From Lichenostomus cassidix (lineage: Eukaryota; Chordata; Aves; Passeriformes; Meliphagidae), in assembly GCA_008360975.2 (NCBI GenBank), contig CM039187.1, positions 12,727,094 through 12,791,093 on the forward strand: a DNA stretch of 64,000 bases. The letters run 5' to 3'. The notes under the pieces are model-generated. The model saw only the letters and a list, made by a program, of their open reading frames with translations, had not been told where the DNA came from and did not search any database. Numbering within the stretch: position 1 is the first letter of the stretch; every line of letters begins with the position of its first letter. Made by a program: the position numbers and the translations under genes. This document shows positions 37,105 to 45,220 of the stretch, piece after piece.

Positions 37105-38110
37105 GCTGTGGCCCTCCGTGTCCGGGGAAGGCAGCTGCCCTGAGCCACGGCCGTGTGGCTACCACCCTCCTCCCGAGCGCAGGGGATGTGGCACATTACC
37201 CCACGGTGGGAGAGGGGCCGGAGGTGATCGGGGTGTTGGATGATGTGGGGCCACCCCTTTGCCGCCCCTTCACCTCCCCTTCAGGGGGTGTGCAGCGGTG
37301 TTGCCCCGCTTACGGCTCCCGGGGTCAGCCCCGTTTAGAGGGGACATGCGGGAGCTCGCAGCGCTGGAAGGGCATCACGTCGGTGGTTCCACTGTCCCCA
37401 GGCTTGGCCGTGACCCTCAGCGGGCTGGGCAGTCCGGAGGTGCTGCCCCTGCCCCCGGCGAGGGGAGAGGCTCCCGGACTCCTCCTCCGGCCGCTCAGGC
37501 GCCTCCAATGAGCCCCGGGGGCGCCTGGGCTGCCCTGCCCTGCCCTGCCCTTCCCTGCCTTCCCTTCCTCACCCCCTCCTTCTTCCATCTAAAAATGGGA
37601 GAGACCAGCCTGGCTGCCGGACCGGGGCTGCCTTCCTCCCCCTCTCCTTCTCCTCCCTCCCCGCGCTCCGCCTGCAGCCTCGCCCCGCGGCCCGGCGGGA
37701 ACATCACTGGGGTGAGCATCCTGCGGGCAGGGAGGGCTGACCCATCCCTGCTTCCCGTCTGCCTTACGGTGTCCCTGTCCCCCTCTAGCCTCTGGCCTGA
37801 CACCCCCCGGCCTGACATCCCCCTCCCCTTTTTCCCGGCTTAGGATTCCTGGTGGGATTAGGGGGGATTTGCTGTGCGTGAGCCGGGAGCGGCTGGGTGC
37901 TGCGAATCCGGCTACCGTGCGGGGGGTGCCGCAAGGAGGGCCCGGCTGTGGGTGCTGGGGAGCGGGGCTGCTCCCGGGGGACGCAGGCTCATCCCTGCAA
38001 GCCCCGTGGCTCCGGGGACATTCGCTGCTCCGGGGTGCAGCAACAAGGGGTGTCCCTGCAGCTGAGGGTGCTCTGAATGCTCCTGGGCGCTCCGATCCCG
38101 GGGTGGGCTG
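37105..38110. promoter_or_regulatory. CpG island, probable SLC2A-gene promoter
   Basis: Dense CpG dinucleotides (for example CTCCCGAGCGC, GCCCCGCGGCCCGGCGGG, CTCCGGCCGCTCAGGCGCC) surround a CCAAT motif at about 37505. Directly upstream of the transporter's first secure exon and in its orientation. The transcription start is not identifiable by eye. Confidence 0.6.
37595..37711 (+). CDS. Tentative first coding exon of the SLC2A-family gene
   Basis: ATG at 37595 (context AAAAATGG) opens 39 codons, MGETSLAAGPGL... to GGNITG, ending at a good donor GGG|GTGAGC in phase 0, which matches the phase-0 start of the next exon. It lies in the CpG island. Against it: the Pro/Ser-rich translation resembles no GLUT N terminus I know, and the adjacent CTAAAAA could be a TATA-like element. 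Confidence 0.33.
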
Positions 38111-38665
38111 GGTCAGGGCTGCAGGGTGGTTGTTCCCCTGCAGCCACCGTCTCCCCGCAAGAGGACCCCCAGCAGCCAGAGCGGGAGACAAAGGTGTTGG
38201 AGGGGGCGAGGATTTAGGATGTGGGTGCATGCGGTGTTTTGGAGTGGGCTGGGACCTTCCGAGGGGACCTTTCAATGGTATTGGGCCACTCGCAGCAGCA
38301 CCGTTTAGCTGCTCCATTGAGGGAAGGGGATAGGTGTCCCTCCCTTCTCCGCCAGCCTCTTTCCATCTTCTGCCTCTCCCAGCTGGGGGAAGGGGTGCCC
38401 AGGTCACCCAGGCTGGGTCACCACCACGGTAAAAAACCTCACAACACAGCCACAAGACCAGCCACGGGGAAGCTGGATCAGCTGGGCTGGGTGCTGGGCA
38501 CTGGCATGATGGAGTGGTCAACACACGATTCCATTGCACTGGGGTCTTTGCTCTGGGCCAGGTCATCGCTACTGGAAAAGGAGTGGTGACCCAAGACAGT
38601 TCCTGACACCTTGGCTCCTGGCTCTGCTGGTCAGGGCAGTGCTGATCCTTCCTCCTCTCTCCCAG
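37712..38665 (+). other. SLC2A-family 5' intron (if exon 1 is right)
   Basis: GC-rich region between the tentative first exon and the TM1 exon. The first half belongs to the CpG island. An alternative first exon could lie here, but I see no ATG with a phase-compatible donor and GLUT-like peptide. Confidence 0.45.
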
Positions 38666-38764
38666 CCACTCACCTTCCCCCTGCTGTCAGTCACCCTTCT
38701 GGTGTCCTTTGGCTCCTCCATGCTCTATGGCTACAACCTTGCTGTGGTGAACTCTCCGGCAGAG
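38666..38764 (+). CDS. SLC2A-family exon: TM1
   Basis: Acceptor CTCTCCCAG|CCACTC, donor GCAGAG|GTAAGG; 33 codons. PLTFPLLSVTLLVSFGSS, then MLYGYNLAVVNSPAE: the classic first GLUT helix. Confidence 0.9.
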
Positions 38765-44700: not shown

Positions 44701-44914
44701 GGTTTTCTGTGGTGTCTGCCTGCTGGTGGCCCTGTATGTCTACATCATCATCCCCGAGACCAAGAACAAAACCTTCATGGAGATCAGCCACATCTTTGCC
44801 ACGCGCAGCTCCATCCTCTCCGTCCCAGCCCGTCTCATTGGGATGAGGAAGCTCGATGGCTATGGGGCTTTGGAGAGCAGCTCCCTGGAGGGCTCAGGCT
44901 CCAGCCTGCCCTGA
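38666..44914 (+). CDS. SLC2A-family (GLUT, class II-like) facilitative transporter, possibly SLC2A15
   Basis: Eleven phase-compatible exons (38666-38764, 39182-39342, 39424-39548, 39802-39947, 40028-40160, 40496-40683, 40811-40921, 42095-42196, 42752-42827, 44331-44458, 44675-44914) give 502 codons plus TGA. A tentative first exon at 37595 would make 541. It is a 12-TM major facilitator protein of the plasma or an organelle membrane. GLUT signatures, numbering from the first secure residue: GYNLAVVNSP (TM1), NAT glycosylation sequon in the first outer loop, VPLYLGEIAPKNLRG (TM4-5 loop), PESPRYLL (~206), QLSG (TM7), ERVGRR (TM8-9 loop), GGSLNW (TM11), PETKNKTF (C-terminal). Similarity is closest to GLUT5-type class II members and the exon layout is theirs. 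Several pocket residues differ from GLUT1/GLUT5 (see findings). SLC2A15, SLC2A11 or a bird-specific member cannot be separated without a tree. Confidence 0.9.
38765..39181 (+). other. SLC2A-family intron
   Basis: A 417-base intron with nothing recognisable beyond its splice sites. Confidence 0.85.
39182..39342 (+). CDS. SLC2A-family exon: outer loop 1 and TM2
   Basis: Acceptor CTGCAG|TACATA, donor GGCAG|GTAAGG. Encodes YIKAFYNATWSQRYG (NAT sequon), then LLYALTVSIFALGGLVGSLL and VEQYGR. The last two bases join the next exon to make Arg. Confidence 0.92.
39424..39548 (+). CDS. SLC2A-family exon: TM3 and start of TM4
   Basis: Acceptor CTGCCAG|GAATGG, donor TCAG|GTGGGT. Encodes NGALSRSALLVLLAGGFMGF and MVIIGRSITGLHS. 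The TM2-3 loop reads GRN where most GLUTs have GRR or GRK. Confidence 0.9.
39802..39947 (+). CDS. SLC2A-family exon: TM4-TM5
   Basis: Acceptor CCCTAG|GTATCT, donor GCAAG|GTGAGC. Encodes ICLSVVPLYLGEIAPKNLRG, then FLGLMPTLFICLGVFSAQV and LGLPELLGK. The position of GLUT1 Gln161 (GLUT5 Gln167) is Thr in MPTLF. Confidence 0.92.
40028..40160 (+). CDS. SLC2A-family exon: TM6 and PESPR motif
   Basis: Acceptor CTCTCAG|GACAGG, donor CAAAG|GTGAGG. Encodes DRFWPLFLSMVVVPASLQ, then LLLLHCFPESPRYLLIERND. PESPR is a hallmark of GLUT proteins after TM6. Confidence 0.93.
40161..40495 (+). other. SLC2A-family intron
   Basis: A 335-base intron; no feature seen. Confidence 0.85.
40496..40683 (+). CDS. SLC2A-family exon: central loop and TM7
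   Basis: Acceptor CCCACAG|CACTGC, donor GACGCC|GTAAGC. Encodes the intracellular helical loop (LHRFLGTPDVQDVIEEMKEE) and VRWQTLSVVVLNAGMQLSG, then IDA. QLSG is kept, but the residues matching GLUT1 Gln282 and Asn288 are Met and Asp. Confidence 0.92.
40811..40921 (+). CDS. SLC2A-family exon: TM7-TM8
   Basis: Acceptor CTCGGCAG|ATCTGG, donor ATCGGG|GTGAGT; 37 codons. IWFYTNTIFENAGIP, then TTLGTGTIEIIAGLIG. Glu falls where GLUT1 has Asn317. Confidence 0.9.
40922..42094 (+). other. SLC2A-family intron with candidate regulatory islands
   Basis: A 1.2 kb intron. Two stretches look unlike the rest: 41335-41465 (GGCAGATTTATGGCCC, TGACAATTACAGAG) and 41630-41730 (TTGGTTATAAAATTACAGGC). No coding signal. 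Confidence 0.6.
41335..41730. promoter_or_regulatory. Candidate intronic conserved elements
   Basis: Homeodomain/CDX-like cores (ATTTATGG, CAATTACA, AAATTACAGG) in GC-rich surroundings suggest enhancer sequence. Evidence is texture only. Confidence 0.25.
42095..42196 (+). CDS. SLC2A-family exon: TM8-9 loop and TM9
   Basis: Acceptor CCCGGCAG|TGCCTC, donor CTGCAG|GTAGGG; 34 codons. CLTIERVGRRPLIIIGF, then SAGITVSLLLQ. ERxGRR is the second GLUT inner-loop signature. Confidence 0.92.
42197..42751 (+). other. SLC2A-family intron
   Basis: A 555-base intron with a short CAC/CAA run followed by A7 at about 42353-42380. Nothing else seen. Confidence 0.85.
42752..42827 (+). CDS. SLC2A-family exon: TM10
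   Basis: Acceptor CCTCGCAG|GCTGCC, donor CCAG|GTGGGT. Encodes AALPWMRYVSVACVVGIIAG, then FCMGP. Cys sits at the place of GLUT1 Glu380. Confidence 0.9.
42828..44330 (+). other. SLC2A-family intron containing a candidate enhancer
   Basis: A 1.5 kb intron, the longest among the secure exons. It includes the AT-rich island described separately at 43180-43345. Confidence 0.8.
43180..43345. promoter_or_regulatory. Candidate conserved enhancer with paired SOX-like sites
   Basis: AT-rich, non-repetitive island in a GC-rich intron. It contains CTGTAATTACATC and TTTAATTAGG homeodomain cores, TTTAATGG, and a perfect 7-base inverted pair CATTGTT (43291-43297) / AACAATG (43302-43308) with a 4-base gap, each arm a SOX-type core. 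Confidence 0.45.
44331..44458 (+). CDS. SLC2A-family exon: TM10-TM11
   Basis: Acceptor CTCTGCAG|CTGGTG, donor TTGCAG|GTACCA. Encodes GVPFLMTAELFTQSHRPAA, then YIVGGSLNWLCNFTVGF. Asn-Trp and the following Asn (GLUT1 Asn411, Trp412, Asn415) are kept; GLUT1 Trp388 is replaced by Phe. Confidence 0.92.
44675..44914 (+). CDS. SLC2A-family last coding exon: TM12 and C terminus
   Basis: Acceptor TCCCCAG|ATGTCA; stop TGA 44912-44914. TM12 (YLVFCGVCLLVALYVYIIIP), then PETKNKTFMEISHIF and a Ser-rich tail ending SSLP. The tail has no dileucine or PDZ-type motif that I recognise. Confidence 0.92.
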   Translation: MSAGAFCYLVFCGVCLLVALYVYIIIPETKNKTFMEISHIFATRSSILSVPARLIGMRKLDGYGALESSSLEGSGSSLP

Positions 44915-45220
44915 TTGTAGTGGGCTGGGGGATGGGGATAGTGGAGGAGGCTCAGGGCTGGGGAAGGATGTGGGGGTCAATTTGTTCCAACCTGGTCATC
45001 TCTGGGTCTCCCAGGACATCTCTCCATGGCACAGCCTGTGCCCAGGATGAGCCCCACTGATGCACCAGGGTTGCTGTGCATGACCCGCATGCTGAAAGAG
45101 ATGTCCCCACAGAGACGAGGGGACCTCCCGAGGCAGGGGGTTCTCATTGCTCCTGGGTGTGGCACCTTGCCAAGAGCTGCTGGCATGAGCTGTTTAATAA
45201 AGAGTGTTGCCACCAGAGCC
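44915..45220 (+). other. SLC2A-family gene 3' UTR
   Basis: Short 3' UTR ending just after the AATAAA at 45196-45201 (TTTAATAAAGAGTG). Confidence 0.7.
45196..45201 (+). terminator. Polyadenylation signal AATAAA of the SLC2A-family gene
   Basis: First canonical hexamer downstream of the stop codon, 281 bases away. Followed by GT-containing sequence compatible with cleavage near 45215. Confidence 0.75.

What the first reader, a model, noticed from the sequence alone, without database searches (positions are those of the whole stretch)
37105..45220. A complete-looking GLUT-family gene sits between BTRC and POLL
Eleven phase-compatible exons encode a 12-TM SLC2A protein with its own CpG island and poly(A) signal. 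In mammals BTRC and POLL are adjacent convergent genes, and I recall no protein-coding gene between them. The simplest reading is an old vertebrate SLC2A member kept in this lineage and lost in mammals. SLC2A15, which in fish acts in pigment cells and which I believe lies near lbx1 there, is the best candidate; that linkage is from memory and uncertain.
Basis: partly seen in the sequence, partly recalled or inferred. Interest (0 to 1): 0.75.

Follow-up and report, generated by a model that had tools for sequence, protein, structure and literature searches.

The report
SLC2A15 transporter gene in a bird
The gene is an intact bird copy of SLC2A15, a membrane transporter kept by sharks, fish, frogs, reptiles and birds but reported lost in mammals; its position and loss were published in 2008, so it is ordinary, although I found no account of what it carries.

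Summary
Window 37595-44914 (+) holds 12 in-phase GT-AG coding exons encoding an intact 541-residue class II GLUT, with AATAAA at 45196, between BTRC (+) and POLL (-). In ML trees of 35 and 46 rows it falls with fish slc2a15a/b, shark, frog, snake and lizard proteins (100/100), sister to GLUT9; AU tests reject joining the bird genes to GLUT9 alone or to GLUT5/7. The same genome holds SLC2A9, SLC2A5 and SLC2A11 genes elsewhere. It is already known: Wotton et al. 2008 named Slc2a15 at this Btrc-Poll position in chicken and Xenopus and stated its loss in mammals. What I add is inference: at 16 GLUT9 pocket positions the window protein keeps 12 (GLUT5 4, GLUT7 5), with Y327M, L332I and N333D in 22 of 22 SLC2A15 rows. 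That suggests a purine- or pteridine-like cargo rather than a hexose; there is no assay, and some evidence points the other way.

The parts
37595..37711 (+). coding exon 1 (start codon to phase 0)
   Evidence: N-terminus like those of bird P0001, P0012, P0025
38666..38764 (+). coding exon 2 (first hydrophobic segment)
39182..39342 (+). coding exon 3
39424..39548 (+). coding exon 4
39802..39947 (+). coding exon 5 (holds the equivalents of GLUT9 206-213)
40028..40160 (+). coding exon 6
40496..40683 (+). coding exon 7, contains MQLSGIDA (GLUT9 positions 327-334)
40811..40921 (+). coding exon 8
42095..42196 (+). coding exon 9
42752..42827 (+). coding exon 10
44331..44458 (+). coding exon 11
44675..44914 (+). 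coding exon 12 with stop codon
45196..45201 (+). AATAAA poly(A) signal candidate
37001..38250 (.). weak CpG island around exon 1
   Evidence: CpG o/e about 0.5
61579..62635 (-). downstream neighbour POLL, 3' coding exons in two stop-to-stop frames
   Evidence: for a 117-residue piece of frame 61579-62175 (DNA polymerase lambda, 216 bits); frame 62231-62635 judged by eye only

Best explanation
The window carries the intact bird orthologue of SLC2A15, a class II member of the GLUT/SLC2A facilitative transporters, at its ancestral place between BTRC and POLL. Shown: gene structure, orthology, neighbours, GLUT fold of a close orthologue. Inferred: it works as a membrane uniporter by the MFS rocker-switch, with one central site that opens alternately to either side. 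Inferred and less sure (about 45%): the natural cargo is a small flat heterocycle of the purine or pteridine type rather than a hexose, because the site is the GLUT9 urate site with two of its three urate hydrogen-bonding residues replaced (Y327 by Met, N333 by Asp). Its role in birds is not shown; in medaka slc2a15b is needed to colour xanthophores and leucophores. The confidence given is for identity and transporter type, not for the cargo.
For: Open 541-residue frame over 12 in-phase exons. Pfam Sugar_tr. Best solved relatives by sequence: GLUT9 513 bits, GLUT5 461, GLUT7 438, GLUT1 373. The 120 listed of 1747 hits are, by the names printed, birds plus one lizard. SLC2A15 clade 100/100 with slc2a15a/b-named fish, skate, shark, frog, lizard and snake, sister to GLUT9 at 99/93 and 99/95. 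AU tests. Ten core introns at the same places as in this bird's SLC2A9, within 0-6 residues of the tblastn ends, so not a retrocopy. Gene models that fuse BTRC with SLC2A15 (two sturgeons, a godwit) and SLC2A15 with a POLL-like tail (cod) show adjacency elsewhere. Pocket: window 12 of 16 like GLUT9, rat GLUT5 4, human GLUT7 5, six SLC2A11 rows 3-6, GLUT1/3-type and invertebrate rows 5-6; positions taken from PMC11169512 passages. 12 of the 16 positions show a single residue in the 20-22 SLC2A15 rows that have a letter there, against 129 of 460 core columns. Medaka lf = slc2a15b (PMC3974636 passages).
Against: No expression or transport data were examined. Pocket identity beyond random core positions is modest alone (P 0.03 for the window, 0.02-0.05 in the other five SLC2A15 rows tried), and part of it is expected of any sister of GLUT9. 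The Met/Asp pair is also seen in the canonical GLUT11 lineage, which PMC5487954 describes as a glucose and fructose transporter, so it does not exclude hexoses. The avian iris-pterin gene SLC2A11B has Gln and Asn at the two sites and a different pocket, so no shared pterin signature is seen. PMC3974636 speaks of a function in pteridine synthesis (unpublished data), which could be indirect. VIA-align ranks GLUT3 above GLUT9 by structure.
Confidence: 0.9

Rival explanations
1. A recent transposed copy of SLC2A9, SLC2A5/7 or SLC2A11 that landed between BTRC and POLL in birds.
For: Public annotations call it GLUT9-like, GLUT5-like or GTR9.
Against: Tree support 100/100 with fish and shark SLC2A15; AU p 1.1e-8 (bird rows with GLUT9 only), 6.5e-7 (bird rows with GLUT5/7), 2.4e-38 (window with GLUT9 only); SLC2A9 and SLC2A5 sit elsewhere in the same genome; Xenopus has it at the same place.
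Confidence: 0.01
2. SLC2A15 is a plain hexose (fructose or glucose) facilitator like GLUT5 or GLUT11; pigment effects in fish are secondary to sugar supply for pteridine synthesis.
For: Canonical GLUT11, described as a glucose and fructose carrier (PMC5487954), shares Met and Asp at the two key sites; GLUT fold.
Against: Window 12 of 16 pocket residues match GLUT9, only 4 of 16 in rat GLUT5 do; Cys427, which replaces the glucose-binding E380 of GLUT1 (PMC11169512), is kept in 22 of 22 rows.
Confidence: 0.35
3. SLC2A15 is a second urate transporter that does the same as GLUT9, useful in animals that excrete uric acid.
For: Sister to GLUT9 and similar pocket; medaka leucophores hold uric acid crystals (PMC3974636).
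Against: Y327 and N333, two of three urate hydrogen-bonding residues, are replaced in 22 of 22 SLC2A15 rows; Y327A and N333A weaken urate binding in GLUT9 (PMC11169512); sharks, skates and teleosts also keep the gene.
Confidence: 0.15
4. A decaying pseudogene.
For: None found.
Against: No stop or frameshift, splice sites intact; 94% identity to the Parus protein and 82% to chicken over 93% of the query.
Confidence: 0.01

Closest known systems
SLC2A15 (Slc2a15; fish slc2a15a/slc2a15b, medaka leucophore free)
   Same: Same gene: clade, BTRC-POLL position, motif MQLSGIDA
   Different: One copy found here; teleosts have two
SLC2A9 / GLUT9 urate transporter
   Same: Sister family, ten shared intron positions, 50% core identity, 12 of 16 pocket residues
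   Different: Y327, L332, N333 and A206 differ; SLC2A9 is a separate gene spread over about 70 kb on another contig of this genome
SLC2A11B (pigeon pearl-eye pterin gene)
   Same: SLC2A gene tied to pteridine colour in fish and birds and said to be absent in mammals (PMC7935293, PMC8432899 passages)
   Different: Lies in the SLC2A11 branch; found at C18:5.165-5.170 Mb of this genome; different pocket
SLC2A5 / GLUT5
   Same: Class II fold; 43-44% identity to the P0012 model in Foldseek alignments
   Different: Only 4 of the 16 GLUT9 pocket residues; the tree places it outside

Membership tests
SLC2A15 | groups with fish slc2a15a/b rather than SLC2A9/5/7/11 | tested here: met
   (100/100); AU
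SLC2A15 | located between BTRC and POLL | tested here: met
   literature
SLC2A15 | absent from mammals | tested here: inconclusive
   No row named as a mammal above 54% identity among the listed 120 of 1747, 120 of 307 and 120 of 194 hits; the last two searches saw only proteins of about 579 residues or more and 138-439 residues; some rows unnamed; mammalian genomes not held. Absence is published
SLC2A15 | role in pigment-cell coloration | not testable with these tools
   shown in medaka (PMC3974636 passages)
SLC2A / GLUT class II | Sugar_tr domain and GLUT fold | tested here: met
SLC2A / GLUT class II | sugar or urate transport activity | not testable with these tools
   no assay
SLC2A9 / GLUT9 | falls inside the GLUT9 clade | tested here: not met
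SLC2A9 / GLUT9 | urate hydrogen-bonding residues Y327, N333, W336 | tested here: not met
   only W336 kept; Met and Asp at the others
SLC2A11B | falls inside the SLC2A11 clade | tested here: not met
   AU for all SLC2A15 joined to SLC2A11 p 0.03, a weak rejection

The most novel reading that the evidence does not exclude
SLC2A15 is an ancient jawed-vertebrate carrier of a purine- or pteridine-type base: a GLUT9-type urate pocket with a fixed aspartate (N333D) that could pair with the amino-pyrimidine edge of guanine or pterins. It would have been kept from sharks to birds with hardly a changed pocket residue and lost in mammals together with pteridine pigment cells. The analogous idea, pterin uptake by a GLUT because GLUT9 carries the similar urate, was put forward for SLC2A11B in PMC7935293 (passage); I extend it to SLC2A15.
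Probability: 0.35. Interest if true: 0.6.

Novelty: already known. Interest (0 to 1): 0.28.

Why it matters
The gene itself is known, but the bird records listed name it GLUT9-like, GLUT5-like or GTR9, which can mislead work on avian urate or sugar transport. The conserved pocket gives a concrete, testable guess at the cargo of a transporter that colours fish pigment cells and that mammals are reported to lack.

Tried and rejected
Rejected: recent transposition, retrocopy and pseudogene (see rivals).

Rejected: the idea that Met/Asp in the pocket marks pteridine-pigment GLUTs. I located SLC2A11B in this genome with the pigeon qPCR primers of PMC7935293. The reverse primer matches 17 of 20 bases in C18:5.163-5.173 Mb, on the strand expected; the forward primer has no contiguous match there, only one elsewhere with 4 mismatches (C18 cluster). 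In one search the first ten bases of the forward primer match exactly at what I read as an exon end plus donor, and the rest resembles the start of the next exon with two mismatches by eye, so it seems to span a junction. That gene has Gln/Asn, while the canonical GLUT11 copy has Met/Asp. The exon-chained paralogue proteins of this genome are approximate at exon edges, so single residues there (for example position 336 of the SLC2A11B row) may be intron read-through.

Led nowhere: plasmid DNA search (no match), Rfam on 34-64 kb (none), bacterial promoter/terminator scan (not meaningful in a bird), tandem repeats. Paper searches gave nothing on the cargo of SLC2A15 in the passages I read; most listed papers I did not open.

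Not done: mammalian BTRC-POLL remnant search, dN/dS, expression.

Choices: the tree rows were mine, 35; one search added 12 and dropped one fragment (Callorhinchus P0318, 262 residues), leaving 46. The chimaera is kept among the 22 pocket rows. The label 'Ba_fish' for P0134 is mine; its record names no species. Inside the SLC2A15 clade the shark and skate join the ray-finned fish (92/67) instead of standing outside, which does not follow the species tree and is weakly supported.
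Full report

Neighbours. BTRC lies upstream on the same strand and POLL downstream on the opposite strand, about 16 kb beyond the poly(A) signal. Gene models that fuse BTRC and SLC2A15 occur in two sturgeons (P0122, P0128) and in a godwit (P0321); a cod model (P0331) starts as SLC2A15 and ends in a tail that resembles the POLL exon of the window by eye and carries PF14791. I take these as annotation errors that still show adjacency. The cod model implies one strand for both genes there, unlike the convergent order in the window.

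Which family. Against solved structures the order is GLUT9 513, GLUT5 461, GLUT7 438, GLUT1 373 bits. The first protein search listed 120 of 1747 hits; by printed names they are birds plus one lizard. To see past the birds I used the length rule of the tool with a long and a short query (120 of 307 and 120 of 194 listed). These brought in proteins named slc2a15a or slc2a15b from teleosts, and SLC2A15-type proteins of sturgeon, skate, shark, chimaera, frog and snake; the rows that I took into trees and pocket counts are 60-85% identical to the lizard query. Rows named as mammals are at GLUT9, GLUT5 or lower level, at most 54%; some rows bear no species name. ML trees of 35 and 46 rows put the window in one SLC2A15 clade (100/100) that is sister to GLUT9 (99/93 and 99/95), then SLC2A11, then SLC2A5/7. 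AU tests on the 35-row tree reject bird SLC2A15 with GLUT9 alone (p 1.1e-8), the window with GLUT9 alone (2.4e-38), bird SLC2A15 with GLUT5/7 (6.5e-7), all SLC2A15 with GLUT5/7 (8e-4) and, weakly, all SLC2A15 with SLC2A11 (0.03).

The same genome. A six-frame search of the 1.1-Gb assembly (80 of 91 candidates scored) finds this gene once (C9), a separate SLC2A9 spread over about 70 kb on C6, SLC2A5 on C23, and SLC2A11-type genes on C18. The ten introns within the GLUT core of the window gene fall at the same places as in this bird's SLC2A9, within 0-6 residues of the tblastn ends. So it is an old sister gene, not a retrocopy or a recent duplicate.

Already known. Wotton et al. 2008 (PMC2446394; outline, one section and passages read) state that in chicken Btrc is separated from Poll by Slc2a15 ('our name'), that Xenopus is alike, that teleosts have a copy at each of two lbx1-type loci, and that it was lost in mammals. 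PMC5487954 (two sections and passages) notes a chicken 'GLUT5-like' product that is distinct from GLUT5 and closer to GLUT9, probably this gene (my inference). [quoted passage not shown] PMC5940169 (passages) names slc2a15 among leucophore and xantho-/erythrophore genes found in different vertebrate lineages.

How it may work. GLUT9 binds urate with W336, N333 and Y327 by hydrogen bonds and with further contacts (PMC11169512 passages). I compared 16 residues named in those passages (urate, apigenin or comparison sites). The window protein keeps 12; this bird's SLC2A9 keeps 16; rat GLUT5 4, human GLUT7 5, six SLC2A11 rows 3-6, GLUT1/3-type and invertebrate rows 5-6. The SLC2A15 rows read LL[S/T]ICVMQIDWEFCNN with few exceptions (Gly at 210 in three fish rows, Ile at 213 in two rows, Lys at 75 in the frog row, gaps in fragments); 12 of 16 positions show one residue only, against 129 of 460 core columns. 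Met at 327, Ile at 332 and Asp at 333 are present in 22 of 22 rows, and a motif search gives Asp in 119 of 119 and Met in 118 of 119 pattern matches among the first 120 proteins. Core identity of the window to GLUT9 is 50%, and 16 random core positions reach 12 matches with P 0.03, so the argument rests mainly on the contrast with GLUT5, 7 and 11. The reading I favour at about 45% is a purine- or pteridine-like cargo, in line with medaka, where slc2a15b mutants lack discernible xanthophores and leucophores (PMC3974636 passages).

Against it. The canonical SLC2A11 copy also has Met and Asp at those sites, and the iris pterin gene SLC2A11B has neither. The same medaka paper speaks of pteridine synthesis, not of transport of a named cargo. 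No transport or expression data were available here. What the gene does in birds is not shown.

Noticed in passing
G000 C18:8.522-8.582 Mb (L020-L025) and C18:5.163-5.173 Mb (L019): An SLC2A11-type cluster of about five copies plus a separate gene that I read as SLC2A11B; some copies are divergent (end branch about 1.0 for one) and may be fast evolving or decayed.
   Followed up: partly
proteins P0122, P0128, P0321, P0331: Public gene models that fuse BTRC with SLC2A15, or SLC2A15 with a POLL-like tail: probable annotation errors that nevertheless record adjacency.
   Followed up: partly
proteins P0001-P0120: Bird SLC2A15 is named GLUT9-like, GLUT5-like or GTR9 in public records.
   Followed up: yes
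window 36950-37040 and 46260-46420: AT-rich stretches in otherwise GC-rich flanks that might be conserved non-coding elements of the LBX1-FGF8 neighbourhood; judged by eye only.
   Followed up: no
window 46959-47015 and 48938-49019: A 27-base tandem repeat and a TA-rich repeat between SLC2A15 and POLL.
   Followed up: no
canonical SLC2A11 (own copy at C18:8.522-8.532 Mb, fish P0179): Shares Met and Asp with SLC2A15 at the positions of GLUT1 Q282 and N288; whether ancestral or convergent is open.
   Followed up: partly
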